From: Planktothrix paucivesiculata PCC 9631
GTDB lineage: Bacteria > Cyanobacteriota > Cyanobacteriia > Cyanobacteriales > Microcoleaceae
Reading direction: 5' to 3'
Assembly: GCF_900009265.2 (NCBI RefSeq)
Contig: NZ_LR735002.1
Location: 76,632-140,631 of the forward strand
Length of the DNA: 64,000 bases
Of the stretch, positions 9,712 through 47,830 are shown piece after piece (the first letter of the stretch is position 1; every line of letters begins with the position of its first letter). The position numbers were made by a program, and so were the translations under genes. The notes under the pieces were generated by a model, which saw only the letters and a program-made list of their open reading frames with translations, had not been told where the DNA came from and made no database searches.

Positions 9712-9871
9712 CCTGCCTCCCCTGCCTCCCCTGCTCCCCCTGCCTCCCTTTCCCTATCCCCCTGTAAGGGATGTTAAACTATCTGGGAGAGTCGTTTTAT
9801 GGAATATCCCCCTGAGAGGGACAGTTTCATCGGAGGACTCGATAGTAGCACTTAAACGTGAGGACAAAAAT

Positions 9872-36103: not shown

Positions 36104-36149
36104 AATAAAATGATATTTTCTCCAGAATATGCTATATTAATAAAAGTTT

Positions 36150-36222
36150 GGGTATGTAGCTCAGTGGATAGAGCATCAGGTTCCGGTCCTGAGGGTCGGG
36201 GGTTCGAGTCCCTCCATACTCG
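36150..36222 (+). tRNA. tRNA-Arg(CCG)
   Basis: Acceptor GGGTATG pairs with CATACTC (one G-U); the anticodon stem TCAGG/CCTGA encloses TTCCGGT with anticodon CCG; the T-loop is GGTTCGAGTCC. The 3' end of this gene is the attachment site of the element that follows, and the tRNA remains complete. Confidence 0.95.
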
Positions 36223-36239
36223 TTACAAGGAAAGTGTTA
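36200..36239 (+). repeat. attL, 40-bp direct repeat (tRNA side)
   Basis: Identical over 40 bases to 47547-47586. It starts GGGTTCGAGTCCCTCC within the tRNA T-arm and ends AAGGAAAGTGTTA beyond the tRNA. The bases just outside differ (G at 36199, A at 47546), so the borders are sharp. Confidence 0.92.
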
Positions 36240-36304
36240 GAACGTATATATAAAGGTAGTTGTAACCTTTAGTATTCAGTTAAGACTTAGCACTTGATCC
36301 CAAA

Positions 36305-36324
36305 TCACTCAATAATCACTCAAT
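36305..36324 (+). promoter_or_regulatory. Candidate arm-type integrase sites, left end
   Basis: TCACTCAAT occurs twice, at 36305-36313 and 36316-36324, spaced 11 bases, one helix turn. The same nonamer occurs twice at the right end, in inverted orientation (47468-47476 and 47498-47506), as expected for arm binding of a tyrosine integrase. Confidence 0.6.
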
Positions 36325-36547
36325 ACCCTATTAGTCTAACGGGTTGAATGAGTAATAACACTATTCGGTTATATAGATAATTGTTATAGGTTTGAGAGCG
36401 ATCGCTAAAGTAAAACTTATGACCCGTAAATAGGTGGTATTAGTGGAAGGATTAGCTTATTCTCTCCAATCCAGAGACTTAGATATTTACTTCCCTAAGT
36501 ACATACAATGGGATGTAAGTAAAACTTTTTTAGGAACGGTAAAAATT

Positions 36548-36766
36548 ATGAGTAAGCTAGACAACTTAGAGAAGGGTAGGGTTAAACGGTATATAGGATC
36601 GGATGAGAAGGTAAAGACTACCCTGTCATTATCACGCTCTACAAGGGACTACTTGAATCAGTACGGTAATGGTATGAGTGAAACGATAGAGTACCTAGTA
36701 TGGTTACACAGTAAAGGAAAAGCAGGTTTAGTAACACAGAAATTTGAGATGTTAAAGATTAGGTAA
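36548..36766 (+). CDS. Ribbon-helix-helix-like DNA-binding protein
   Basis: 72 aa from ATG 36548, preceded by AGGAAC; a longer frame starting at 36434 lacks a ribosome site. The segment KVKTTLSLSRSTRDYLNQYG reads as one beta strand followed by helices, with a NGMSETIEYLVWLHSKG second helix, the pattern of MetJ/Arc-type regulators. Small, basic (KGRVKR). It is the first gene inside the left end, so it may regulate excision or copy control (inference). Confidence 0.55.
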   Translation: MSKLDNLEKGRVKRYIGSDEKVKTTLSLSRSTRDYLNQYGNGMSETIEYLVWLHSKGKAGLVTQKFEMLKIR

Positions 36767-36774
36767 TAATAGAA

Positions 36775-36816
36775 TCTACATTGTAGATTTTACAATGTAG
36801 ATTACAAAGTAGAAGT
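36775..36816. repeat. Palindrome and first copy of an element-specific repeat
   Basis: TCTACATTGTA and TACAATGTAGA form a perfect 11-bp stem with a GATTT loop directly after the 36548-36766 gene. The part 36788-36816 is repeated with few changes at 41884-41912, also directly after a gene. It may serve as a terminator or protein-binding site. Confidence 0.6.
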
Positions 36817-36834
36817 AGCAGTTAACCATTAAAA

Positions 36835-37896
36835 TTATACGAATTTATAAACTACATAGTCTTCTAAGATATCTCTAATTTCATCGGTAAACCCTTCAAA
36901 AAACTGTTCGATAAAATTCCCGATCTGACTACCATAATTTTTTTTGATATCTTCAAATTTGTTTTCCACCCATGTACTGACACGCCAGTCCTTGACTTCT
37001 GACTCTTTTGTGAGTGTGTTTTCTTCATCTCCCCATTCTTTAGCGAAAGCAGCAATTTTAGGGTAATTTTTCTCGATATCGGGAGTCTTTAATATAAAGT
37101 CTCTAAATGCAGTCCGACCGCGCATAAACGCGAACAAGAAACCGACTCTCTGACTAACAACTACACCCTGATATGCAAACGCACTAACACCGCTTAATAA
37201 ATCCTCTCTCTTATCTTCTGCAAATTCAGAATAAGTAATAGCAAGTCCTCTAATATCTACCTCTATTTTCGGCGGTTCTAAACTACCGAGTAATAATAAT
37301 CGAGCGAAACTACTACCTAAAAAGTCGCCCGCTTGTCCATATAACCCATCGATCAACCCCTTGATTTGTTTCCAGATCTGACTATCCGGTATATCCCAGT
37401 TAAAATCATATAAAAAGTCTGTCTGATTCAAGATTAAACCGAGTGCCGATCCTAAACCGTTTTTAGCAGCGATAAACCCAGCGCCGCCAACAATAGCGGT
37501 GATAGATATGTCTTGTACAAGGCTTTGAGCTTGACTACCTTTTGATCCTATGAAGTTTACCAAAGCGGTGATCGGTTGAAACAGGCTACCTGCTACACCT
37601 CCGACAATAGCACCGCCTATTGCTCCTATCGGCCCGCCTATAGCGCCCAGTCCCGCGCCTATTGTTGCAGATGTAGCTATATTTAATAAAAACCCTTTTA
37701 ATTTATCCCAAAAACCTTTGGGAGAGTTTAACTGTTGCCCTAAAGTAGATATAAAATCACTCTTTCCTTGGAACCAATTTGGATCGGGTGCTATATCCTT
37801 TGTTGACCATGCCTCCGATAACGTTTCTAAAAAAACGCTTGTTACGTCTTTATCGTTTGACGCTTCAAATTCATAAGATTGTGTACTTGTAACCAT
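36835..37896 (-). CDS. Unknown 353-aa protein with a glycine-zipper membrane segment
   Basis: Residues about 70-105 read TIGAGLGAIGGPIGAIGGAI followed by VGGVAGSLF, a long glycine-zipper pattern found in membrane-inserting or self-assembling proteins. There is a second hydrophobic stretch near 125-150. The rest is soluble and acidic, with a C-terminal amphipathic end. No signal peptide. I do not recognise a family. It is the only large minus-strand gene of the left half, divergent from 38046, with operator-like DNA between them. Possible roles are a membrane-active exclusion or defence protein (speculative). Confidence 0.65.
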   Translation of the reverse strand: MVTSTQSYEFEASNDKDVTSVFLETLSEAWSTKDIAPDPNWFQGKSDFISTLGQQLNSPKGFWDKLKGFLLNIATSATIGAGLGAIGGPIGAIGGAIVGGVAGSLFQPITALVNFIGSKGSQAQSLVQDISITAIVGGAGFIAAKNGLGSALGLILNQTDFLYDFNWDIPDSQIWKQIKGLIDGLYGQAGDFLGSSFARLLLLGSLEPPKIEVDIRGLAITYSEFAEDKREDLLSGVSAFAYQGVVVSQRVGFLFAFMRGRTAFRDFILKTPDIEKNYPKIAAFAKEWGDEENTLTKESEVKDWRVSTWVENKFEDIKKNYGSQIGNFIEQFFEGFTDEIRDILEDYVVYKFV

Positions 37897-37993
37897 AATA
37901 ATTTAATTGTTTTTGCTGTGCGTTCTAATCCGATTATAATACAAGCTCATCCAGAAAAGGCACAGGCTACTAAAATAAAAAAGCGATCCTATT

Positions 37994-38010
37994 GAATCAG
38001 TGTTACACTG
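37994..38010. promoter_or_regulatory. Operator-like palindrome in the divergent promoter region
   Basis: GAATCAGTGTTACACTG contains the palindrome CAGTGTTACACTG (37998-38010). The 11-mer GAATCAGTGTT recurs at 47522-47532 and, inverted, at 41359-41369, and GGTGTTACACTG at 46032-46043. Confidence 0.55.
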
Positions 38011-38235
38011 ATATTAGCAAACAGTAGTAAACACTGAAAAAAGTCATGCCTAACTACAATCCGAATACTGAAGGATTAAGTCAACCAAAATGGGTTAATA
38101 AACCCGTGAAAATTTACCGTTTACCTGAACCCATAGCAGATGACGTACTAGCCTATGCTCATCTACTGGACAAGGGTGATGTTGCTCCTATTGTCATCAT
38201 CCTGAACCATGCACTAGGTTTACCTGCTAACAAAG

Positions 38236-39660
38236 CAGGGGGTTTTCATTTTCCCAAATGCGATCGCTATCTTCAAAAAAAATTATCAATTTTTCCGATC
38301 AAATTCTCTCTAATTTTCATCAGATAAGTGGGAAATATTAAGAATGAACAATTTTCATATTTATTAACAGCAAAAGATAGCCATTGTCTTGATTAATAAG
38401 ACTTTATGACTATTTATTATTAAATATTTTGAATGTTTTTTTAGAAAAATAGTTTTAAAAACTTAATTAATTCAGGCGATCGCTAAAATCTTTTCCCAAT
38501 TATTTCCCAACCATGACTGTCCCTCTTTTATTGAGCTAAAACCCAAACTTCTGTATATATTCAAAATTAATGTTACTAATAACGAGAATTTTCCGGCTAC
38601 GTCTATGCCTTTTATTCTTGATTTATCTTCATTAAAATTCACATCTTTGACCCAATGTACTTGATTTTCAATTAACCAATGTGCTTTAATTTTTTCTGCA
38701 AATGTTTTCGCACTTAATTTCTGACTACTAATATAATATAAAGTCTCATTATATTCTTGATCACCCCGAAAACCCGTTCTTTCTACCTGAATAAAACTTT
38801 GAAGATGAGGATAATTTTTATGGTTGACATTTTGGCTATCAAATACTGATACTTTTCTGCTAATATTTCGCCCATGACTGACATCTTTTTCTTCATATAC
38901 CGTTAAAGGTTTTTCGATTTCTGCTAAAATCTTGATCCGATTGTGCAATTTAATTTGATTCCCTTTTACCGTAATTAAATAATTATTTTTGCTCTCAATT
39001 ATTGCCTGAGTTGTTTCCTTACTACAATGGAGAGCATCGAGGGTAAATACTTTATTTAATAACCCGCATTTTTCTATCATAGACAGAACTTTAGCGTTTT
39101 CAGAACTTTGTTTACTTTCAAAACTTTCCGATTTAATTACTAACTTTGTTTCTTGACTAAACCAAGATACCATAATTAACATATTTTGTTTCTGATTTTC
39201 ATAGTTAGTCAGGGTGTTTTTTAAAGATTTTCCATCGATCGCAATCCAATCAACGCCTTCTTGTTGCCAATAATATTCCTGGACTATTGACTGAAAAACC
39301 AACTGAATTTCTATTGAATTTATTCCGAGCATTACTCGTCTTATGGTACTATAAGACGGCAATTTTTTAGTGTTAGTTTCTAATAATTTAATTAGCTTAT
39401 TTTCTTCATTTTTTCTAAAATTATCTATTTGCTTATAAGTAACATTGCCAGTTAGCAGTGCTAAAACAATGATAGTCAACACTACCCATAATTCATGTCT
39501 TTTACCACGATTTTTCCGAAAATCCTTGACTAACTTCAGTTGTTCGATTATACTGTTTAACATAGTTTTTTAAAATCAAATAAAAGTGATCTTTCTTTGA
39601 TTTTACCAAAAAAAGATCACTTTTATTTTCTTTTTTACCCCCGACAATGAAAACACCCTG
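38236..39660 (-). mobile_element. ISAs1-family insertion sequence (1425 bp) with 9-bp target duplication
   Basis: The ends are CAGGGGGTTTTCATT (left) and, on the other strand, CAGGGTGTTTTCATT (right). CTAACAAAG flanks both sides (38227-38235 and 39661-39669). Same architecture as the element at 8289-9711, but a different, diverged member of the family. Confidence 0.93.
38472..39563 (-). CDS. ISAs1-family transposase
   Basis: 363 aa: MLNSIIEQLKLVKDFRKNRG, AIDGKSLKNTL, FTLDALHCSKE, and HWLIENQVHWVKDVNFNED. Full length with no internal stop. It shares order and spacing of motifs with the transposase at 8525-9616. Confidence 0.92.
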   Translation of the reverse strand: MLNSIIEQLKLVKDFRKNRGKRHELWVVLTIIVLALLTGNVTYKQIDNFRKNEENKLIKLLETNTKKLPSYSTIRRVMLGINSIEIQLVFQSIVQEYYWQQEGVDWIAIDGKSLKNTLTNYENQKQNMLIMVSWFSQETKLVIKSESFESKQSSENAKVLSMIEKCGLLNKVFTLDALHCSKETTQAIIESKNNYLITVKGNQIKLHNRIKILAEIEKPLTVYEEKDVSHGRNISRKVSVFDSQNVNHKNYPHLQSFIQVERTGFRGDQEYNETLYYISSQKLSAKTFAEKIKAHWLIENQVHWVKDVNFNEDKSRIKGIDVAGKFSLLVTLILNIYRSLGFSSIKEGQSWLGNNWEKILAIA

Positions 39661-39764
39661 CTAACAAAGGGGGCGCGATTAAAACAGATATCAAAAAAGT
39701 GTTAGAGATACTAGAGAAGTCTAACCGTTAATTTTTCCCTTATATTTAGTCAAAAGCAGGTATA

Positions 39765-40035
39765 GCTGGTAAAGACTCCCTCTATATAAGGGTTTAAGCT
39801 GGTACACTACCCCCTAACAAGCTGGTAACTAACCTGGTAAAGCTGGTAAAAAAATAAATTTAACTAAAATAGCTGTGTAGGCTGTGTAAGGAAATTGAAA
39901 GTATTGATATATAAGGGTTAGAGGTTTACACAACCCCCTTACACAACCTTACACAACCACCCTTAGCAGTTTTATCCTAAATAGCTTGTAACCATTACCC
40001 CATAAGCATTACAACACTTACACAGCCTACACGGT
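39765..40035. repeat. Iteron-like repeat cluster, candidate replication origin
   Basis: Five GCTGGTA-type units (39765, 39798, 39821, 39833, 39842) are followed by two tandem 9-mers GCTGTGTAG/GCTGTGTAA (39872-39889), three TTACACAACC units (39926, 39939, 39949) and a TTACACAGCCTACACGG pair (40018-40034). GCTGTGTAA is the complement of TTACACAGC, so both orientations of one motif are present. A second cluster with an identical 18-base stretch lies inside the VapE gene. Confidence 0.7.
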
Positions 40036-40052
40036 GAAAATAATCAAAAAAT

Positions 40053-40081
40053 AACCCCTGATAGATAGTTAGTCAGGGGTT
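40053..40081 (-). terminator. Terminator of the XRE regulator gene
   Basis: AACCCCTGA (40053-40061) pairs with TCAGGGGTT (40073-40081). On the minus strand it is followed by ATTTTTTG; on the plus strand by TTTAATG. Confidence 0.75.
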
Positions 40082-40106
40082 TTAATGTTTGGGGGGTGAT
40101 GGTGGG

Positions 40107-40319
40107 TTAGTCTACTTGCTCTACCCATTCTAATAACTCGCTAGGTTGGACTCTGTATCTATCACAGATTCTACTTAACACGGATGACGAGGGTAGCTGT
40201 TCTGGGTTGTTGTACAGATCGTAAGCTGTTTTAGGAGCAAGCCCTACGTCCTTCCAGAGTCGGTAAGGGGTAATCTCCCTGTTATCACAAAAATGTTTGA
40301 TTTTATTTATCACTGCCAT
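40107..40319 (-). CDS. XRE/Cro-type helix-turn-helix regulator
   Basis: 70 aa consisting of one HTH domain: ITPYRLWKDVGLAPKTAYDL with recognition helix PKTAYDLYNN, then SVLSRICDRYRVQPSELLEW, the classic C-terminal helices of the Cro/C1 family. It is minus-strand and divergent from the 40549 gene cluster, which is the position of a phage-like repressor. A palindrome at 40358-40371 lies in its promoter. It is the most likely binder of the repeated operator-like motif. Confidence 0.85.
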   Translation of the reverse strand: MAVINKIKHFCDNREITPYRLWKDVGLAPKTAYDLYNNPEQLPSSSVLSRICDRYRVQPSELLEWVEQVD

Positions 40320-40357
40320 ACCTCAACTTTACCATTAACAGTATCCTAGCAGTTATT

Positions 40358-40371
40358 ACTATATATATAGT
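40358..40371. promoter_or_regulatory. 14-bp palindrome upstream of the XRE gene
   Basis: ACTATATATATAGT, a perfect palindrome 39 bases upstream of the regulator start. It could be an autoregulatory operator or the -10 region. Confidence 0.4.
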
Positions 40372-40477
40372 AGTTATATCTAATTAGTATTACTTATCCG
40401 ATAGCAGTAGGTAATAAGTATATTGTATTAATAAAGATAGCATTAATATTCAAATAGTAGTAATCTGTTAATAAATA

Positions 40478-40516
40478 ACCCACTGGCGAAAAGTTTGGCG
40501 ACCGACACCAGTGGGT
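40478..40516 (+). promoter_or_regulatory. Leader hairpin upstream of 40549
   Basis: ACCCACTGG (40478-40486) and CCAGTGGGT (40508-40516) form a perfect 9-bp stem with a 21-base loop, just before the AGGAG ribosome site of the next gene. It could control translation or mark a transcription start. Confidence 0.45.
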
Positions 40517-40548
40517 ACTCACCCCTAGTTATTAGGAGCATTTCAATT

Positions 40549-41253
40549 ATGACACTGACAGAACTTAAAGCTAAAGCTACTGAATTAGGGTTAACCCCTG
40601 ATGAAGTGCGTCAACACGGTAGCTTATCCAAAAAGGCAACCTGGGAGAGTGCTATTGATAATATTGAAACCGTTGAAGTTGAAACGGTAGAAAATATCGC
40701 TGTAACAGTCAATCAACCTACCGTTGAATATTTGCCCTTTGACAACCCTACCCATACCTTGATTGATGGGGAATGGGTGCTATGTTCTGAAACCGTTGAC
40801 CCTAGCAAACTCCCAGAACTTGCAGAAACCGATCCACGTTTTGAAGCGTGGCAACCTTGGATGATACCCGGCGCGAACTTTACCGGAGCATGGCAAGTTT
40901 ATGAAATTCTCTACTTTGATGTTTGGGGTAACTGCAACGCTAAAGGAGCCGATACCAAAGGATACTCGTTCCGAATTGAGAGTATCGTTAACACCGCAAC
41001 GGATGATTATGTCCAAAAGTCCGAACCCATCCCGCCGTTAACTCCCCTAGGTGAAGCTAACCAGTTATCCGATTGTCTTGAATCCGATACACCCATTCGT
41101 GATCAACTGCTTTTAAAGATGATGGACAAAGGCTTGTCATTGCCAGATTTAGAGGAACTTGAGAACGCGCCCTTGGATGAAGATACCGCCGTTGTTTTCT
41201 TAACTCTATTAGAAGAAAGTGATCGGATGTTATCGGAGGCATTGGCACTATGA
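40549..41253 (+). CDS. Unknown 234-aa element protein with an N-terminal SAP-like segment
   Basis: Starts at ATG 40549 with AGGAG 10 bases upstream; an earlier TTG lies inside the leader hairpin. The first 35 residues (MTLTELKAKATELGLTPDEV) look like a SAP or Rho-N type helix-extension-helix, found in DNA/RNA-binding proteins. The middle contains a Trp-rich GEWVLCSETVDPSKLPELAE and WQPWMIPGANFTGAWQVYEI. No known enzyme motif. Its last codon overlaps ATG of the 36-aa gene (ATGA at 41250), so the two are coupled. Confidence 0.65.
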   Translation: MTLTELKAKATELGLTPDEVRQHGSLSKKATWESAIDNIETVEVETVENIAVTVNQPTVEYLPFDNPTHTLIDGEWVLCSETVDPSKLPELAETDPRFEAWQPWMIPGANFTGAWQVYEILYFDVWGNCNAKGADTKGYSFRIESIVNTATDDYVQKSEPIPPLTPLGEANQLSDCLESDTPIRDQLLLKMMDKGLSLPDLEELENAPLDEDTAVVFLTLLEESDRMLSEALAL

Positions 41254-41360
41254 AACCCACAGGGATAATTGATTATTTGTTCCCAGGTTTGTTGTACCTA
41301 CTTTGCTTCTTAGCAGGTTTCTATTTAGCAACTCACATCACTATCACAATATCGCTGTAA
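41250..41360 (+). CDS. 36-aa single-pass membrane protein
   Basis: ATG 41250 overlaps the stop of the previous gene (ATGA), with GGAGG about 10 bases upstream. Translation: MKPTGIIDYLFPGLLYLLCF then LAGFYLATHITITISL, i.e. one hydrophobic helix of about 20 residues. It is short but well supported by its start context. The function is unknown; small phage or plasmid membrane proteins of this kind can be lysis, exclusion or regulator peptides (inference). Confidence 0.5.
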   Translation: MKPTGIIDYLFPGLLYLLCFLAGFYLATHITITISL

Positions 41361-41369
41361 CACTGATTC
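41359..41369 (-). promoter_or_regulatory. Operator-like 11-mer upstream of 41386
   Basis: AACACTGATTC, the exact complement of GAATCAGTGTT found at 37994-38004 and 47522-47532. It lies 17 bases before the start of the next gene. Confidence 0.5.
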
Positions 41370-41385
41370 ATAAGGAGATTAAGCT

Positions 41386-41880
41386 GTGCTCGGATTCTTA
41401 CGCGGAGATGATTTAAAATCATCAACAATCGCACCCGTTGACGGTTCGCATAAAGGCATTGCTAAAGACAATGTTTTTAAACTTTCAGCTAGTAACGCAA
41501 TTACACCCGATAACCCACCGGAAACAATTTTTGACACTTATCGGACAATGCCAGTTTGTGACCGAGTGAGGGAGTTTACCCCAGAAGAAGCGGACGGCCT
41601 GAGCGAGTTAGCACGGGTCAAAAAACAGAATGCTAAGGCTACTAAAAAAGCAGCTGATCAGCATGAAATCATCCTTAACAGTGAGGCGAAAATCAACCGA
41701 CATGGGCAACGGATGATCCGTAATGAAGCTGAATTTGAGGTTAAAACTCAAGGCTATAAAGGCACAACCGCCAAAGCCTTGCAAGCAAAAAGACCGCGTT
41801 ATGCAGCTATGGGTAAAGGTTTAGAAAAGTCTGAACAGTTAGCTGACCAAGCAATCGCTAACTTAATGGCTCAATTGTAA
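41386..41880 (+). CDS. Unknown basic 164-aa element protein
   Basis: GTG start at 41386 supported by AAGGAGA at an 8-base spacing. Charged and helical, with a Lys/Ala-rich stretch (ARVKKQNAKATKKAADQHEI) and a basic region (KINRHGQRMIRNEAEFEVKT). No membrane segment or known motif. It could bind nucleic acid or act as an assembly or scaffolding protein. It sits in the middle of the plus-strand run 40549-43207. Confidence 0.6.
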   Translation: MLGFLRGDDLKSSTIAPVDGSHKGIAKDNVFKLSASNAITPDNPPETIFDTYRTMPVCDRVREFTPEEADGLSELARVKKQNAKATKKAADQHEIILNSEAKINRHGQRMIRNEAEFEVKTQGYKGTTAKALQAKRPRYAAMGKGLEKSEQLADQAIANLMAQL

Positions 41881-41883
41881 CTG

Positions 41884-41912
41884 TTTTACATTGTAGATTC
41901 TACGAAGTAAAA
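41884..41912. repeat. Second copy of the element-specific repeat
   Basis: TTTTACATTGTAGATTCTAC and the following GAAGTAAA resemble 36788-36816 closely, with both copies directly after a stop codon and able to fold. Confidence 0.6.
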
Positions 41913-41925
41913 CTCAAAAACATAA

Positions 41926-41951
41926 ACCCGTCCTTTCATGCCGGGACGGGT
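41926..41951 (+). terminator. Hairpin ACCCGTCC/GGACGGGT
   Basis: An 8-bp perfect stem with a 10-base loop between the 41386 and 41998 genes. There is no long U-tract; it may attenuate or stabilise the transcript. An apparent ATG at 41938 lies in its loop. Confidence 0.5.
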
Positions 41952-41997
41952 CAAATCAAAATGTACAACTACTGCACTAACTAAAAAGAATTGTAAC

Positions 41998-42264
41998 ATG
42001 ATTGTAACACAAATTGAAAGACGCAAAATTGAGTTTTTCGTGTCAACAGATATCCCATTACCTGAATATTGTATCGGTCAACTGGTAGAGGTTTTTTCAT
42101 CAGTTAGCTGGGATAACCCTAGTGAAAAGCGTTGGTTCCCAGCAAGGGTGACAGGCATGGAACACAGCCACAGCAAGTGGAGTTATCAAGTTCAATTCCT
42201 AAACTGTAGCGGTCAAGGTATTGAATGGGTCAACCCTCAAGATATGTGGCTATTAGAACCTTAA
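41998..42264 (+). CDS. Small SH3-like protein, 88 aa
   Basis: From ATG 41998 (MIVTQIERRKIEFFV). The region CIGQLVEVFSSVSW and KRWFPARVTGMEHSHSKWSY, then YQVQFLNCSGQGIEWVNPQD, resembles Tudor/KOW-like beta barrels. The C-terminal end of the VapE protein (VGDKVIEVFQQTVDGYKWFG, YKVRWDNAHTTG) has the same pattern, so both may bind the same partner. No recognisable enzyme motif. Confidence 0.6.
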   Translation: MIVTQIERRKIEFFVSTDIPLPEYCIGQLVEVFSSVSWDNPSEKRWFPARVTGMEHSHSKWSYQVQFLNCSGQGIEWVNPQDMWLLEP

Positions 42265-42269
42265 CCAAA

Positions 42270-42536
42270 ATGATCCAATTTTATCGCGTTGTCGGGTTCT
42301 TTTTATTGGTAGCTAGTGGTGCAAGTTTAGTTAGTTTACTGGCATTATTAATTACTCAATTGAGAGAACTCTTTTTTATTATTTCCTTACTGTGTTCTAT
42401 TGGTTTAGGAATCGCAGGAACGGTTATCTATTACCGTAAAACCGATGATAAAGAATGGGTCTTGGGTTTAGTTTTTATTATCGGTTTAGCTACCGCCTTA
42501 TCATTAGGGGGTGTCATTCAATGGGTTACTCAGTAA
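42270..42536 (+). CDS. Small membrane protein, 88 aa
   Basis: From ATG 42270, with three hydrophobic segments: VVGFFLLVASGASLVSLLAL, FFIISLLCSIGLGIAGTVIY and VLGLVFIIGLATALSLGGVI. There is a short charged loop (YYRKTDDKEW). It overlaps the next gene by 16 bases, so the two are coupled and perhaps form one complex. Confidence 0.65.
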   Translation: MIQFYRVVGFFLLVASGASLVSLLALLITQLRELFFIISLLCSIGLGIAGTVIYYRKTDDKEWVLGLVFIIGLATALSLGGVIQWVTQ

Positions 42537-43207
42537 TCAATCCATCTAGTAACGTAGAAGCAATTAAACAGAACTGGAAAACCCATCACTTAATTAACAT
42601 TTTCCTGTTAACTACCTCACTCCCATTCTGGATTGCTACCCCGTTTTTAACCCGCGACGTAAACGCTAACAATTGGCATAAGTTTTTTAGATTTACCTCT
42701 ATAACCTACGCAATTTTAGCGAGTGGCACATCACTCTACTTAACAACAAAGTTAGGAGAAATTAAGCCTAAAATTGACGCGATTAAAAAACGTGAACAAG
42801 CCGAATTTAAACACAGTTTAGCTAGTGACTTATTCTTGGCACAGGGTACGAATACCGCTATCGCCCAATATTTACTCACTGAGCGGGGTACTTCCCTGAC
42901 TTCCCAAGGTGTAAGTGACCCGGAAGTGACACTAGAAGCCGATACTACCGTTTTTGATGAGGAAACTTCCCACACTTCCCAAACACCGGAAGTACCCACT
43001 TCCGACATTCCCGTAAGTGGAAGTAAACCGGAAACTGGGTTAAGTGTAGAAGCTGAAGAAATGTTTGAACTTGTAATTGATGCCTTAGAGGATGGTTACT
43101 CAGATACCAAAATAGTTGAGGAGTTAATGGGGTATAAAGGGAGAAGCTACAAAAAGGGTAAAAACGTATTAAACGAGATTAAACGTTTTATTGAGTTAAA
43201 CGATTAA
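42521..43207 (+). CDS. Membrane-anchored protein with a low-complexity linker, 228 aa
   Basis: From ATG 42521 (MGYSVINPSSNVEAIKQNW). Two membrane helices (INIFLLTTSLPFWIATPFL and SITYAILASGTSLYLTTKL) lead into a Thr/Ser/Pro-rich linker (TSHTSQTPEVPTSDIPVSGS) and a helical C-terminal domain (ALEDGYSDTKIVEELMGYKG) with an HTH-like pattern. The linker DNA holds repeated ACTTCCC/GGAAGT units. It may be a sensor or tether that links the membrane to DNA. It is cotranslated with the 42270 gene. Confidence 0.65.
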   Translation: MGYSVINPSSNVEAIKQNWKTHHLINIFLLTTSLPFWIATPFLTRDVNANNWHKFFRFTSITYAILASGTSLYLTTKLGEIKPKIDAIKKREQAEFKHSLASDLFLAQGTNTAIAQYLLTERGTSLTSQGVSDPEVTLEADTTVFDEETSHTSQTPEVPTSDIPVSGSKPETGLSVEAEEMFELVIDALEDGYSDTKIVEELMGYKGRSYKKGKNVLNEIKRFIELND

Positions 43208-43569
43208 TCATTTTTCGCGAAAAACCCGTTAATTAGTTTTTTACTCTAAATCAGTTATCAGTTTTTATTTGATTAAAAGTTAAAAGTGTACAGCAAGTGG
43301 AGTTAGCGAGAGTGTAATAGGAAACCTTAAAGGTTTCGTTTATCTTTCCCTAAACTTACACCCCCTAAAGTATTGATACAGAATGCCTAAACCCTAGGGT
43401 TTCCCTGTTCAAAAATAAATCTTTTTATTGTTGAAATTCTCTCGATAGTTGTGCTACTTTCAGAGAGTACCTTCTTACAAACGAAAAAGAGGCAACCCGT
43501 AAAAGCTACCTCTTTGAAGATATAAATAGAAATTCAAATAGATTAACCGTATAAAGGAATATTGATGAT
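43208..43569. other. 360-bp leader region of the VapE gene
   Basis: No credible gene. It contains several small stem-loops: GAAACC/GGTTTC (43321-43339), the palindrome AACCCTAGGGTT (43390-43401) and AAAGAGG/CCTCTTT (43486-43515). The last ends about 55 bases upstream of the gene start. It may be an attenuator or promoter region for replication functions. Confidence 0.5.
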
Positions 43570-45999
43570 ATGAACACCTCCACCAAGAATGTAAACAAAA
43601 CACCGATGAGTAGTGCTGATACAAATAATTATAGTACAACTCACCAAAAAGCACAACCTTTAGGGGAACTCAAAAAAAATACTCGGTTAACCGTTACCCA
43701 TTGGGACTACTTGGTTACAGAACGGGGTTTGCCGTTTGATTGGGTTATAGATAACTGCGAGTCAATGACTGCGGAGACCGCCACGGGGTATCTAGGATAT
43801 GCACCCCCATCTAACGGGATTATGATCCGTAGCAGTAACGGTCAATGGCAGTTTAAACCGGATAGCCCAAAGGTCACAACTAAAGATGATGGGACTAAAA
43901 AGGTTTTAAAATACTTAACCCCTAGGGAAGATCAAGGGTATGATGCAATGCTCCTAACTCATCCTGATTATTCCGATTACTGGACTAACCTTGATAAGTT
44001 GAAGGAACGGGCTTACAAGATAAACGGTGTACCCTGTATTGCTATAACAGAGGGTGCGTTTAAGGCAATGGTGGTAATGGATAACGGTATCCCCTGTGTG
44101 TCTGTGCTAGGGGTTGAAATGGGTTTAACTCCTAAGAAAAATGACCCGCAAGAGAAACGATATTTAGTTCACGCCCTAGAAAAATTCGCTAAAGCGGGTT
44201 TTGGGTTCTTAATGATGTTTGACGGTGATAGCGCTACGAATATAAATGTTAAAAATGCGCTAAAAAAACTCGGTCATCAACTAGGATTGTTTAATAATCC
44301 TGTTTATGTAGCTAGTTGGAATATGACAAGCGAAAAAGATAAGGGTGTAGATGATTACATCCTTAACCACGGGTTCCCACAATTCCAGAGCGAGGTTTTA
44401 TCAAAGGTTCAATCTTTTGCTGAATGGTTAACTAAGGTTGATCAGGAGTTTAAGGATAATGGGATTAATGCAGATGACTTACCTCAAAAAATAGGTAAAC
44501 TGGGAGCGCAACGCACACAATTAAAACTAGTTGTTGGCAATAGACTCCGGCACAACGAATTAACCAAGGAAATTGAATTAGATGGGATATCAATAGGGTC
44601 TGATGACTTTAAACTTGAGTTAGATGAAACCTTTGGGCTTGAGTTAAAATGTACCGAGAGAGACTTAAAAGCTATCGTCATTAAAACCGCAAAGGAGAAT
44701 AGTTATCACCCCGTTAGAGAATACCTTAGTCAATGCAATGAAAAGCATTCTGATACATCTATTCTTAACGGTTTTGCTAAACGGTATTTTGGAGTAAGTA
44801 ACCCGTTATATGAAACGTTTGTTAGAAAGTTTTTGACTGGTGCTGTGGCAAGGGTTTTTGAGCCGGGATGTAAACTAGATACCATGCTAGTTTTACAAGG
44901 GGAGCAGGGTGTCGGTAAGTCTAGTTTCTTCAAAACTTTGGCAATAAAAGACAACTGGTTTTGTGACAATATAAGTATTAAAGATAGGGACAAAGATGAA
45001 TTGTTAAAACTTCACCAAACATGGATAGCTGAAATTGCCGAATTAGATTATACATTCAGTAAGACAGATACAGGTAAAATCAAGTCATTTCTATCGACAT
45101 CATCCGACAAACTTAGAACACCTTACGCCGTCAAAACAGAGTCAATGCCTCGTATGTGTGCTATGGCAGGCACAACAAACAGCTTAGGGGTGCTTAATGA
45201 CCCGTCTGGTGCGCGGAGGTTTCATATAATTTCTGTTACTAAAGAAATCCCTATAGACTTACTAGAAAAAGAGTGTGACGCGATTTGGGGTGCTGCCGTA
45301 CAATGCTATAAAAACGGTGAACTTTGGTGGTTAAATCGTGAGGAGCAAAAACAATCTAATGTTAATAATGAAGCGTATTCAAGGGATTCTCCCTGGTTAG
45401 ATGACATTGAGAACTTCGTAGAAGACAAGATAAGTGTCGCTACCGATGATTTACTGAACGTGATGGGAGTTCAAAAAGACAACCTGAGTCAAACCAAGAG
45501 GGCTGAAATAGAGATAGCTGACATCATGCTAAAACTGAAATGGGTTAAAGCTCAAGGGATTAAAGATGACAACGGTATTCGTAGGCGTGGTTATAAGCGC
45601 CCTGTTGTAACGGTTCCCGATACGGAATCATCAGATACACAACCCCCTTACACGGCCCCCCCTAGTTGTGTAGATAGCTGTGTAAACTCAAACCCTGACA
45701 CAGAGGGGGATACACAGTTTACACGGCCTACACAGCAAAATTGTCAAACTTCAGAAAATGTAAAATCAGAACCCATACCGACACCAAAACCAGAAGGGTT
45801 TAAGGTTGGTGACAAGGTGATAGAGGTGTTTCAACAGACTGTTGACGGGTATAAGTGGTTTGGTGTCGTTGTCACGATAGAGGAACCCAGAAGGGGAGAC
45901 ATGGGGGGTATCTACAAAGTCAGATGGGATAACGCACATACTACCGGGTTAATGAGCGATGTGTATGAGCATCAGATAGAACCCTACCAAGGGCATTAA
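43570..45999 (+). CDS. TOPRIM/VapE-type primase-helicase, 809 aa
   Basis: The N-terminal half resembles DUF3854: ITEGAFKAMVVMDNG (TOPRIM acidic residue near 160), SVLGVEMG and MMFDGDSATNINVK (DGD near 218). The second half is VapE/D5-like: LQGEQGVGKSSFFKTLA (P-loop near 443-455), IAEIAELDYTF (Walker B), STSSDKLRTPYAVKTESMPR and AGTTNSLGVLNDPSGARRFH. A flexible linker (QPPYTAPPSCVDSCVNSNPD) joins a SH3-like end. The architecture is that of replication initiators of satellites and plasmids. It should unwind and prime at the element origin. ATG 43570 is supported by AAAGGAAT. Confidence 0.9.
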   Translation: MNTSTKNVNKTPMSSADTNNYSTTHQKAQPLGELKKNTRLTVTHWDYLVTERGLPFDWVIDNCESMTAETATGYLGYAPPSNGIMIRSSNGQWQFKPDSPKVTTKDDGTKKVLKYLTPREDQGYDAMLLTHPDYSDYWTNLDKLKERAYKINGVPCIAITEGAFKAMVVMDNGIPCVSVLGVEMGLTPKKNDPQEKRYLVHALEKFAKAGFGFLMMFDGDSATNINVKNALKKLGHQLGLFNNPVYVASWNMTSEKDKGVDDYILNHGFPQFQSEVLSKVQSFAEWLTKVDQEFKDNGINADDLPQKIGKLGAQRTQLKLVVGNRLRHNELTKEIELDGISIGSDDFKLELDETFGLELKCTERDLKAIVIKTAKENSYHPVREYLSQCNEKHSDTSILNGFAKRYFGVSNPLYETFVRKFLTGAVARVFEPGCKLDTMLVLQGEQGVGKSSFFKTLAIKDNWFCDNISIKDRDKDELLKLHQTWIAEIAELDYTFSKTDTGKIKSFLSTSSDKLRTPYAVKTESMPRMCAMAGTTNSLGVLNDPSGARRFHIISVTKEIPIDLLEKECDAIWGAAVQCYKNGELWWLNREEQKQSNVNNEAYSRDSPWLDDIENFVEDKISVATDDLLNVMGVQKDNLSQTKRAEIEIADIMLKLKWVKAQGIKDDNGIRRRGYKRPVVTVPDTESSDTQPPYTAPPSCVDSCVNSNPDTEGDTQFTRPTQQNCQTSENVKSEPIPTPKPEGFKVGDKVIEVFQQTVDGYKWFGVVVTIEEPRRGDMGGIYKVRWDNAHTTGLMSDVYEHQIEPYQGH
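45636..45736. repeat. Iteron-like cluster inside the VapE coding sequence
   Basis: TACACAACCCCCTTACAC at 45636-45653 is identical to 39927-39944. GTTGTGTAG (45665), GCTGTGTAA (45677), GATACACAG and TTACACGGCCTACACAGC (45719-45736) follow. The DNA codes for a low-complexity linker, which could tolerate such repeats. Confidence 0.7.
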
Positions 46000-46006
46000 C
46001 AAAACT

Positions 46007-46023
46007 AGGGGGATAATCCCCCT
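46007..46023. terminator. Hairpin between convergent VapE and integrase genes
   Basis: AGGGGG and CCCCCT enclose ATAAT. It is followed by TATGAAACGGTGTTACACTG, which contains the operator-like motif again (46032-46043). Confidence 0.5.
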
Positions 46024-46030
46024 TATGAAA

Positions 46031-46043
46031 CGGTGTTACACTG
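46031..46043. promoter_or_regulatory. Operator-like palindrome between VapE and integrase
   Basis: CGGTGTTACACTG differs at one base from the palindrome at 37998-38010. It is in a convergent intergenic space, so it is not at a promoter of either flanking gene. Confidence 0.4.
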
Positions 46044-46057
46044 TTAAAACTACTCTA

Positions 46058-47464
46058 TCAGCAATTTTGATAGATAATCCTTAAAATATTATCAATATCA
46101 GTTAAACTAAAATTATTGTCAATTAACCGTTGTTTGGCTGTATCTATATCTAACGGTTGTTTTTTTGTTGAATTATTAATAATATCTAATTCAGTTTTTA
46201 AGTTTCTACGCTTCTTATATGTACCTGTATTCGTGGTTTCACTGTGTCCCATTAAACGCGATCTGATAGTAGTATTAATCCCACACATCTCTAATAATTG
46301 ATTGTATAAATGTCTGAAAGCATATTTTTGAGTTATCGGACAATTATAACTATTCATACGTTTACTGAAGTTTAAATCAAAACCATTGGTTATAGTTTCG
46401 GGTTTACTATCTTTTTTAGGGTTATAAATCGGTAATAACGGATCACGTATTTTTAAATCATCCCAGAGGTATTTTAACGGTACTGGGTTAATGACTCTTA
46501 ATCCTGTTTTAGTGCTAGTTCCAAAGTAAGTAAACTCACCGATTACCAAAGTACACTCAGGGTTATTGATTTTATCAGTTATCGGGTGAACCGTTACATT
46601 ATCTTTAGTGTATGATTTATCTAAATTTAAACTAGCTGCAATCTCAGAGGGTCGTAAACCGTATAGTACGCACATAGCAGAAACCCACAACCAAGATCGC
46701 TTAGGGAGTATCCGATCCTCTCTCTCTAATAATTCAATACTTTTATACGCTTCTTTATACCAGATCAAAAAATCATCTAAGCTGATAGATTGTTTTTCAT
46801 TAAAAATTGTTTGCTGCGAATTAACGTTTTTAATCTGTTTAATTAATTTAGTATTATTCGGGGTTAACTCAGCAATAGCTAACATTACCGACTTAACATC
46901 TTTATACGACTTAGTACCTACAATGAAACTATCCCAAACTGTTTTTATCTCATCCCAAGTAGGGTAACTATCCCAAGCGGTAAACCGATGAAATACCACA
47001 CCATAGACACGGTTAAAGCTACTCCAATCATTTACACCACCGGGCGTGTTTTGATCCTCCGTGCGTTGTCTACCAGTGTTTCTATGCTTACCTTTAAAAT
47101 AGTTGTCTTTAATAATCTCGAATATTTGCTTGTAAGTTAGCCTATCACTCTCTAAAGTATTACTTTTAACCTTTATATTGTCGTCATACCAAGCCCAGAA
47201 GTCTGATGATGTATTGTAGCGTTTTAACGCTTCTGATACCTTATAGGCTTTATCAAGTGCGTCCAGCAATCCCCTTCGAGTAAATTGTAAGGATAACCCT
47301 TTAGTTGTACGATTCCCGGTGTCAGGGTTAACGAATTGCAAAGATAGTGTTTTTCCGTTTTCTAGTTTAATCCTTACACCTTTGGGACATTGTTTCTGGG
47401 TACGCTTTAAATCTAGGAGCAAATCGGAATACTCATCATACACACCGCCAGAATTGTCACTCAT
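46058..47464 (-). CDS. Tyrosine recombinase (integrase)
   Basis: 468 aa. Catalytic residues can be placed: Arg271 (YGLRPSEIA), Lys319 (STKTGLRV), Arg384 and His385 (KYAFRHLYNQLL), His407 (LMGHSETT) and Tyr416 (NTGTYKKRR). The long N-terminal part (about 230 residues) has SAM-like core-binding and extra segments, probably an arm-binding domain. It faces left with its start 83 bases from attR. Candidate arm-type sites and a copy of GAATCAGTGTT lie between its start and attR, so its promoter may be repressed. Confidence 0.93.
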   Translation of the reverse strand: MSDNSGGVYDEYSDLLLDLKRTQKQCPKGVRIKLENGKTLSLQFVNPDTGNRTTKGLSLQFTRRGLLDALDKAYKVSEALKRYNTSSDFWAWYDDNIKVKSNTLESDRLTYKQIFEIIKDNYFKGKHRNTGRQRTEDQNTPGGVNDWSSFNRVYGVVFHRFTAWDSYPTWDEIKTVWDSFIVGTKSYKDVKSVMLAIAELTPNNTKLIKQIKNVNSQQTIFNEKQSISLDDFLIWYKEAYKSIELLEREDRILPKRSWLWVSAMCVLYGLRPSEIAASLNLDKSYTKDNVTVHPITDKINNPECTLVIGEFTYFGTSTKTGLRVINPVPLKYLWDDLKIRDPLLPIYNPKKDSKPETITNGFDLNFSKRMNSYNCPITQKYAFRHLYNQLLEMCGINTTIRSRLMGHSETTNTGTYKKRRNLKTELDIINNSTKKQPLDIDTAKQRLIDNNFSLTDIDNILRIIYQNC

Positions 47465-47467
47465 TAT

Positions 47468-47506
47468 TCACTCAATCCTTATATTCGGGTTAGGTATATT
47501 GAGTGA
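47468..47506. promoter_or_regulatory. Candidate arm-type integrase sites, right end
   Basis: TCACTCAAT at 47468-47476 and its complement ATTGAGTGA at 47498-47506 form an inverted pair. They lie directly upstream of the integrase start and mirror the two direct copies at 36305-36324. Confidence 0.6.
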
Positions 47507-47521
47507 TAGCGATCAACGACA

Positions 47522-47532
47522 GAATCAGTGTT
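47522..47532 (+). promoter_or_regulatory. Operator-like 11-mer upstream of the integrase
   Basis: GAATCAGTGTT, identical to 37994-38004. It lies 58 bases upstream of the integrase start codon, between the arm-type sites and attR. Confidence 0.5.
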
Positions 47533-47546
47533 GTAGGCTGTACCTA

Positions 47547-47586
47547 GGGTTCGAGTCCCTCCATACTCGTTACAAGGAAAGTGTTA
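47547..47586 (+). repeat. attR, 40-bp direct repeat
   Basis: Identical to 36200-36239. Only the 3' end of a tRNA is copied here (T-arm and acceptor strand), so this copy makes no tRNA. Confidence 0.92.
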
Positions 47587-47602: not shown

Positions 47603-47830
47603 TCAACCCAGAAAAGTTTGTTCAGTAACGCCAAAGCGAAAGTTGTTACCACTAATATTAAACACGGTATATGGTCTAACATAATCAGCCGTAGGAAAAA
47701 TAGAGATTAAATTAGGGAAAGAATCAAAATCGTTTTCTGTGATTAAAACTACCCATCTTTCTAAGGAAGCTTTCGCATTAGGGTGTTTTCGGATGAATTT
47801 GGCTATTTTCCTTTGTCCGATCAAAAACAT
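47603..47830 (-). pseudogene. HigB-like toxin, probably truncated
   Basis: 75 aa, with FIRKHPNAKASLERWVVLIT and FPTADYVRPYTVFNISGNNF, which match the HigB family (KHPDAK...L..W...FPSADFV...VFNIGGNKYRL). After NNFRF the sequence (GVTEQTFLG) departs from the family and stops about 20 residues early. No HigA-type antitoxin lies beside it. The truncation is outside attR, so it was not caused by element insertion. Confidence 0.6.

What the first reader, a model, noticed from the sequence alone, without database searches (positions are those of the whole stretch)
36200..47586. An 11.3-kb integrative element in tRNA-Arg(CCG) with a primase-helicase but no virion or conjugation genes
Seen: perfect 40-bp direct repeats, one in the tRNA 3' end, a tyrosine integrase with all catalytic residues next to the right end, an XRE regulator and a TOPRIM/VapE protein. 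Known: VapE-type initiators with integrase and no structural genes are typical of phage satellites and integrated plasmids. Inference: it is a replicating, excisable element, perhaps mobilised by a helper phage. Its small genes (36835, 40549, 41386, 42270, 42521) have no family I recognise.
Basis: partly seen in the sequence, partly recalled or inferred. Interest (0 to 1): 0.85.

Follow-up and report, generated by a model that had tools for sequence, protein, structure and literature searches.

The report
Small tRNA-gene-hopping replicon in Planktothrix
This is a small piece of mobile DNA that inserts itself into a tRNA gene of a cyanobacterium and carries its own copying gene; it belongs to a scattered cyanobacterial family whose cutting-and-joining enzyme is missed by a standard protein search.

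Summary
A Planktothrix-genus genome carries an 11,347-bp element between perfect 40-bp repeats, one completing tRNA-Arg(CCG). Genus mate G260 has the empty site: flanks adjacent, one core copy, 39 of 40 bases identical. The integrase keeps R, K, R, H and Y; Tyr replaces the box-II His.

The small genes do have family: orf93, orf234, orf164, Agenet-like, TM and orf250 recur, mostly in this order, in other elements, several beside tRNA genes. Rep joins a DUF3854 half, as in CyRepA plasmid initiators, to a VapE helicase; a sister has a D5-type helicase instead.

The integrase belongs to a cyanobacterial family found at 13 tRNA isoacceptors and not in the plasmid or phage records searched. Of 52 non-redundant genes, 44 have an 11-bp-spaced repeat around the start, read as arm-type sites; in 32 it overlaps an in-frame start codon. 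Control genes: 23 and 5 of 368.

Helper-phage mobilisation is neither supported nor excluded. Function is inferred; nothing was tested at the bench.

The parts
36149..36223 (+). tRNA-Arg(CCG), the integration target; its 3' 24 bases lie in the left repeat
   Evidence: ARAGORN and Rfam
36200..36239 (+). left attachment core (40-bp direct repeat)
   Evidence: single copy, 39 of 40 identical, at the empty site of G260
36303..36370 (+). putative left arm: ACTCA at 36307 and 36318 (11 bp apart), TGAGT at 36349
   Evidence: same pattern in 5 of 9 left ends looked at
36434..36766 (+). small protein next to the left end; ribbon-helix-helix-like by eye only; candidate excision or directionality factor (inference)
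   Evidence: no Pfam match; relatives 57-80% in G239, G245 and G273
36835..37896 (-). orf353, glycine-zipper-like protein (by eye); accessory cargo found in some elements
   Evidence: no Pfam family
38046..38235 (+). 5' part of small conserved gene orf93, interrupted by the IS (remainder starts near 39661)
   Evidence: relatives in other genomes align only up to residues 46-67, near the IS point
38236..39660 (-). ISAs1-family insertion sequence (transposase 38472-39563), 9-bp flanking repeat CTAACAAAG
   Evidence: NCBIfam NF033564, 245 bits; ends read by eye; second copy in the genome
39662..40110 (.). region with iteron-like repeats (AGCTGGTAA; TTACACAACC), densest about 39740-40030: candidate replication origin
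   Evidence: 35 repeated 9-mer pairs against at most 13 in 200 dinucleotide shuffles
40107..40319 (-). HTH_26 (XRE-type) regulator
   Evidence: Pfam 7.1e-13
40549..41253 (+). orf234, conserved in sister elements (open frame from 40495)
41386..41880 (+). orf164, conserved into Microcoleus and Tychonema elements
41998..42264 (+). Agenet/Tudor-like small protein (open frame from 41938)
   Evidence: Pfam PF05641 1.3e-4, below cut-off; relatives 47-93%
42270..42536 (+). small protein, membrane-spanning by eye (TM103 in the listings, open frame from 42225)
   Evidence: relatives 38-96%
42521..43207 (+). orf250, conserved hallmark next to Rep (open frame from 42455)
   Evidence: relatives 25-94%; distant relatives on two Crinalium plasmids
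43570..45999 (+). Rep: DUF3854 (157-268) + VapE helicase (388-603) + conserved C-terminal tail
45630..45760 (.). second iteron-like cluster inside the 3' part of rep
   Evidence: rep 45251-45999 shares 15 10-mers with the intergenic region; at most 7 in 300 mononucleotide shuffles
46058..47464 (-). tyrosine-recombinase-type integrase, 468 aa
47459..47546 (-). putative right arm: ACTCA at 47459 (overlaps the start codon) and 47470, TGAGT at 47500
47547..47586 (+). right attachment core (40-bp direct repeat)

Best explanation
A tRNA-targeted integrative replicon: a small integrated plasmid that keeps an integrase and an initiator and has no recognised transfer genes. SHOWN by sequence: bounded insertion in tRNA-Arg(CCG), an empty site in G260, and relatives, one with the same gene order, in other tRNA genes. 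INFERRED: the integrase binds 11-bp-spaced arm-type sites on both sides and recombines the core with the tRNA T-arm, so the tRNA stays whole. Because one arm site covers the integrase start codon in much of the family, bound integrase should shut off its own expression (autoregulation, as shown for KplE1 IntS). Different cores behind similar arms let the element change its tRNA target. After excision Rep would act as initiator: its VapE helicase and DUF3854 domain work at the iteron-like repeats (intergenic, plus a second cluster inside rep, P4-like ori/crr). The HTH protein would hold it silent and the 36434 protein may direct excision. Route between cells unknown. My estimates: integrative element that has moved 0.97; replicates after excision 0.8; integrase autoregulation 0.6.
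For: Repeats and tRNA. Empty site. Sister G273 element: 24-bp repeat at tRNA-Gly(CCC), nominally 9,665 bp, same order of small genes and integrase. Arm sites: 44 of 52 non-redundant genes with an 11-bp repeat, 32 with an in-frame ATG in it; control gene starts 23 and 5 of 368 by the same test. Of 56 unique arms with a start-codon repeat, 27 have a T-loop motif, 19 of these 79-84 bp from the start codon. Rep: VapE 2e-71, DUF3854 4.5e-24; relative of solved chain 7pds, 'Similar to D. nodosus vapE'. Iterons. DUF3854 proteins support plasmid replication in cyanobacteria (PMC10079941, passages). Autoregulated integrases: PMC2951348 (abstract and passages).
Against: No joined junction in 10 same-genus assemblies, up to 3 mismatches, nor in IMG/VR, exact. 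Sister elements look decayed or incompletely assembled: G239 integrase in two frames; G273 Rep matches only residues 13-169, but an unread base lies in it, perhaps an assembly join, so truncation and length are unsure. The IS splits one conserved gene of this copy. Four of nine left ends lack the ACTCA arm pattern, 8 of 52 genes lack the 11-bp repeat, and 29 of 56 unique arms have no T-loop motif. In one stretch (G245:C2) orf93 lies on the far side of Rep. Origin, arm sites and autoregulation are sequence inferences without a bench test.
Confidence: 0.82

Rival explanations
1. A phage satellite of minimalist (PICMI-like) type: induced and packaged by a helper, probably virulent, phage, with Rep amplifying it during infection.
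For: Parts match in kind: integrase, HTH regulator, primase-helicase and no packaging genes; PICMIs have int, alpA and a primase and no capsid-remodelling genes (PMC10803314, passages). The VapE domain's only solved relative found is 7pds, which I recall as a SaPI Rep.
Against: Integrase absent from 50,697 phage records and from pattern scans of IMG/VR; no DNA match of 39662-47546 in phage records. No Terminase_6N in the window's genome; 2 of 10 genus genomes have one, G245 and G273, which do carry related elements. Rep and orf250 have plasmid relatives, though Rep also matches 644 phage records, over the VapE part in the rows listed.
Confidence: 0.3
2. A mobilisable integrated plasmid carried by conjugation: a helper relaxase acts on an oriT in the element.
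For: Distant relatives of orf250 (26% and 25%) lie on two Crinalium plasmids typed mobilizable, MOBP; Rep relatives lie in 144 plasmid records, cyanobacterial ones among the best, none covering 80% of Rep.
Against: No relaxase family among the element ORFs scanned; the integrase is absent from 72,556 plasmid records; no oriT search was made.
Confidence: 0.25
3. A decayed, now immobile island: it once moved but the IS and loss of partners have fixed it.
For: IS inside a conserved gene; a sister with its integrase in two frames; no junction seen.
Against: The 40-bp repeats are perfect; Int and Rep frames are intact.
Confidence: 0.15

Closest known systems
Tycheposons (Prochlorococcus and others)
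   Same: tRNA-bounded, tyrosine recombinase, 4-200 kb (as described in PMC10872708, passages)
   Different: This family's integrase matches no Pfam integrase model; no nutrient cargo was recognised; the primary tycheposon paper was not read and no tycheposon sequence was compared
PICMI and other PICI-type satellites, P4
   Same: Integrase + HTH regulator + primase-helicase; VapE or D5-type helicase; integrated state; two iteron clusters as in P4 ori/crr (recalled)
   Different: No packaging or capsid genes found, no helper known; Rep has a DUF3854 half; PICMI sits next to fis and its search model uses PF00589-type integrases
CyRepA cyanobacterial plasmids (pSYSA, pCC5.2)
   Same: DUF3854 at the N-terminal side of a helicase-bearing initiator
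   Different: CyRepA is described with a DEXDc domain; here VapE (window) or D5_N/DUF5906 (G239, G075); here the element is integrated in the chromosome
KplE1 prophage intS
   Same: Integrase promoter and ATG region inside the attachment region, with arm-type sites; negative autoregulation shown there
   Different: Here a putative arm site itself covers an in-frame start codon in 32 of 52 non-redundant genes; regulation not tested
Heterocyst excision elements (nifD/XisA type)
   Same: Cyanobacterial element with its own recombinase between direct repeats (PMC4874684, passages)
   Different: Those interrupt functional genes; here a tRNA gene is kept whole; the integrase was not compared with XisA

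Membership tests
tRNA-targeted integrative element | direct repeats, one completing a tRNA gene, integrase at one end | tested here: met
tRNA-targeted integrative element | empty site in a relative | tested here: met
   G260
Active mobile element | excised circle or joined attP seen | tested here: inconclusive
   0 of 10 genus assemblies, 0 exact in IMG/VR; no reads available
PICI/SaPI-type satellite | VapE/pri-rep replication protein | tested here: met
PICI/SaPI-type satellite | packaging-hijack genes (terS, cpm and the like) | tested here: not met
   no such family among the element ORFs: 12 of 12 scanned in Pfam, 10 of 12 in NCBIfam and in PHROGs
PICI/SaPI-type satellite | induction and packaging by a helper phage | not testable with these tools
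   needs infection experiments
PICMI | integrase by PF00589, PF00239 or PF07508 | tested here: not met
   0 of 12 integrases of A1 at E 0.01; PF00589 does ring in an unrelated integrase
PICMI | AlpA by PF05930 or PF12728 | tested here: not met
   HTH_26 instead; PF12728 only 0.12 and below its cut-off
PICMI | primase with DUF3987 and DUF5906 | tested here: not met
   DUF5906 26.7 bits, just under its cut-off of 27.6; no DUF3987 listed
PICMI | integration next to fis | tested here: not met
   site is tRNA-Arg(CCG); folB and a BMC-domain gene are near neighbours
Tycheposon | tRNA boundary, tyrosine recombinase, 4-200 kb | tested here: met
   definition second-hand from PMC10872708
Tycheposon | kinship of integrase or replication gene with Prochlorococcus tycheposons | not tested
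   no tycheposon sequence was fetched
CyRepA plasmid initiator | DUF3854 domain | tested here: met
   4.5e-24
CyRepA plasmid initiator | C-terminal DEXDc helicase | tested here: not met
   VapE-type domain instead
ICE or IME | relaxase or conjugation gene | tested here: not met
   element ORFs in Pfam, NCBIfam and PHROGs

The most novel reading that the evidence does not exclude
A cyanobacteria-wide class of minimal integrative replicons, built from a divergent integrase not recognised by Pfam and a swappable Rep module, in which the integrase start codon is written inside the integrase's own arm-binding repeat, so that expression and attachment-site occupancy are one switch, while the core is free to change and the element moves from one tRNA gene to another; one branch in Arthrospira may have left tRNA genes and spread to 9 dissimilar, non-tRNA-like sites.
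Probability: 0.45. Interest if true: 0.68.

Novelty: new variant of a known kind. Interest (0 to 1): 0.55.

Why it matters
Annotation that relies on PF00589 would not see the 12 integrases tested here, so such elements are likely to be unlabelled in cyanobacterial genomes; Arthrospira sp. PCC 9108 alone has 26 loci, several of them interrupted. The start-codon repeat gives a simple DNA signature by which new members can be found and their ends placed, and makes integrase autoregulation directly testable. Rep proteins with like ends and a replaced helicase (VapE or D5) show initiators being rebuilt by domain exchange. Close integrases with different tRNA targets make retargeting of site-specific recombinases open to study.

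Tried and rejected
Rejected: heterocyst-type excision element (a tRNA gene kept whole is the site); prophage remnant (no virion family among the element ORFs apart from weak tape-measure hits to orf353; integrase absent from phage records); ordinary ICE (no conjugation family found). CRISPR evidence: searches of 10 genus genomes with the element list several short matches outside or at the edge of sister elements. Only one was followed up, a 45-bp exact match in the own genome (G000:C145), which proved to be an orf93 remnant beside a second IS copy; no other match was checked for being a spacer. PADLOC gave only weak hits for 10 of 12 element ORFs (LeoB 1.2e-4 on the glycine-rich part of orf353). 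The PDB profile hit of the integrase (Hemolysin BL, 5e-4) covers 80 profile positions outside the catalytic part and is taken as chance. orf353 gave no convincing PDB relative. Viral-contig scans for integrase, Rep, orf353, orf250 and the integrase alignment found no relative. Structure prediction of orf353 did not finish, so its fold is unknown. The first control of the start-codon test (21 of 300 with a repeat, 1 of 300 at the ATG) used a narrower overlap test; it was repeated with the same test (23 and 5 of 368). Papers: the listings of searches show no title or abstract start that describes this family; most subscription journals are not in that library.


Full report
THE OBSERVATION. The window belongs to a genome (G000) of the same genus as Planktothrix sp. 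PCC 11201: the contig of that strain (921,973 bp) has the length of the contig of genus mate G239. tRNA-Arg(CCG) lies at 36149-36223. A perfect 40-bp direct repeat lies at 36200-36239 and 47547-47586. In genome G260 the left flank (to 36239) and the right flank (from 47587) follow each other without a gap, with one core copy differing at 1 of 40 bases. This is an empty site. In the other 8 genus genomes the tRNA gene has different sequence behind it (for 7, for G291), so G260 is the one clean case.

WHAT IS IN IT. Left to right: a small protein (36434), orf353 (36835, minus), orf93 (38046) split by an ISAs1 element, iteron-like repeats, an HTH_26 regulator (40107, minus), orf234 (40549), orf164 (41386), an Agenet-like protein (about 41998), a small membrane-type protein (42270), orf250 (42521), Rep (43570) and the integrase (46058-47464, minus). 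The IS is about 1,425 bp, so the element would be near 9.9 kb before it (arithmetic only). Pfam and NCBIfam give matches over a curated cut-off only for the transposase, the HTH protein and Rep. PHROGs adds helicase and primase families for Rep, a repressor family for the HTH protein and weak tape-measure hits for orf353; PADLOC gives weak hits only.

THE INTEGRASE FAMILY. R271, K319, R384, H407 and Y416 are invariant in 12 aligned proteins; the box-II His position is Tyr in 10 and His in 2 (roles recalled). None of the 12 hits PF00589 at E 0.01, while an unrelated integrase in a genus mate does, which serves as a positive control. None in 72,556 plasmid records, 50,697 phage records or pattern-based scans of IMG/VR.

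SITES. Of 100 stretches examined, 19 have a repeat of 18 bp or more that ties the integrase side to a tRNA gene (several stretches are duplicates of one contig and many are too short to hold both ends). With G273 (24 bp, tRNA-Gly(CCC), nominally 9,665 bp) that is 20 loci and 13 isoacceptors: Arg-CCG, Arg-TCT, Gly-CCC, Gly-TCC, Thr-CGT, Val-GAC, Leu-CAA, Asn-GTT, Pro-TGG, Pro-GGG, His-GTG, Met-CAT and Lys-CTT, at spacings of 1.7-13.6 kb. On a tree of 19 of these integrases (L160, cut short, was left out), 4 of the 6 well-supported end pairs join different targets: window Arg-CCG with Gly-CCC, Gly-TCC with Arg-TCT within one strain, Val-GAC with Arg-CCG, and Pro-GGG with His-GTG. Arg-CCG recurs in three places on the tree.

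ARM SITES AND THE START CODON. Around the integrase start lies a repeat spaced 11 bp. In 52 non-redundant genes (of 86), 44 have a match of 7 of 8 or better at offset 11 in the 125-bp region searched; no other offset from 6 to 25 exceeds 10. In 32 of the 44 the downstream copy overlaps an in-frame ATG; the repeat differs by lineage (TGAGTAA, GGATAG, GAGAGAAA, GAGCGAAA), so the proteins begin MSN, MDR, MRE, MSE. The start codon was taken from that overlap, not from an annotation. By the same test, 23 of 368 control gene starts from the same stretches have such a repeat and 5 have an in-frame ATG in it (an earlier, narrower control is). Of 56 unique arms with a start-codon repeat, 27 have a T-loop motif: 19 at 79-84 bp from the ATG, 7 at 91-92, 1 at 122; 29 have none. 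The left ends of 5 of 9 elements carry the same ACTCA pair and TGAGT; the other 4 do not. I read these as arm-type integrase sites; that is inference. Autoregulated tRNA-linked integrases are known (PMC2951348, abstract and passages); the start-codon overlap as a family trait is what I add.

THE REPLICATION MODULE. In G273 the order tRNA-Gly(CCC), 36434-like, orf93, orf234, orf164, Agenet, TM, orf250, start of Rep, integrase is that of the window. Parts of the same row lie behind tRNA-Val(GAC) in G239, tRNA-Ser(TGA) in G200 and tRNA-Arg(TCT) in G075 and tRNA-Thr(CGT) in G245; in G245:C2 orf93 lies on the far side of Rep. Microcoleus and Tychonema elements keep integrase and orf164 with a large frame, recognisably Rep-like in L147 and L157, and in L147 also orf250. 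Distant relatives of orf250, each preceded by a small overlapping gene, lie on two Crinalium plasmids. The Rep of G239:C19 is 47% and 44% identical at its ends to the window's, but its middle is D5_N/DUF5906 instead of VapE. A G075 element, apparently between tRNA-Arg(TCT) and a short copy of a tRNA end, has an ordinary PF00589 integrase and a D5-type Rep. So initiator and integrase are exchanged as blocks. Iteron-like repeats are dense in 39662-40110 (35 9-mer pairs; at most 13 in 200 dinucleotide shuffles) and recur in the 3' part of rep in three elements (15, 20 and 25 shared 10-mers; maxima 7, 8 and 8 in 300 mononucleotide shuffles each). Two clusters recall P4 ori and crr (recalled).

AGAINST. 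No joined junction was found. The G239:C19 sister has its integrase in two frames. The G273 Rep looks cut short, but a single unread base lies there, and some G239 stretches hold runs of N, so decay and poor assembly cannot be told apart. Transfer between cells has no direct evidence; the one terminase family tried is missing from the own genome and present in 2 of 10 genus genomes.

VERDICT. A real integrative replicon that has moved and probably still can. It works like PICMI or tycheposon islands and like a CyRepA-type plasmid, but fails defining tests of PICMI and CyRepA, and kinship with tycheposons was not tested. New variant of a known kind.

Noticed in passing
L107, L108, L109, L112, L113, L114, L125, L131, L150 (Arthrospira sp. 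PCC 9108, CP066886.1), near 9870: Nine of 26 integrase loci end in TATGTAGACGC or TATATAGACGC followed by different, non-tRNA-like DNA each time: dispersed, perhaps transposon-like insertion sites. The far ends were not located.
   Followed up: partly
G239 contig C21 (L065, L066): tRNA-Arg(CCG) with its folB neighbour is duplicated, and more than one element seems to stand in tandem behind it; one has a left arm like the window's. The stretch holds a 1,089-base run of N.
   Followed up: partly
L196 3930-5304 (G000:C145): A second, identical copy of the ISAs1 transposase next to a 45-bp remnant of orf93, with the other IS end adjoining it than in the window.
   Followed up: partly
window 47603-47830: HigB-like toxin fragment (profile 1-49 of 74) just outside the right repeat; G260 matches it only in two short pieces.
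   Followed up: no
window 42170-42190 and 43290-43310: 21-bp repeat, 90% identical, once in the Agenet-like gene and once between orf250 and rep; no explanation.
   Followed up: no
L116 13083-13796, L102 18972-19613: Other elements of the integrase family carry a tail-fibre-like and an endolysin-like gene.
   Followed up: no
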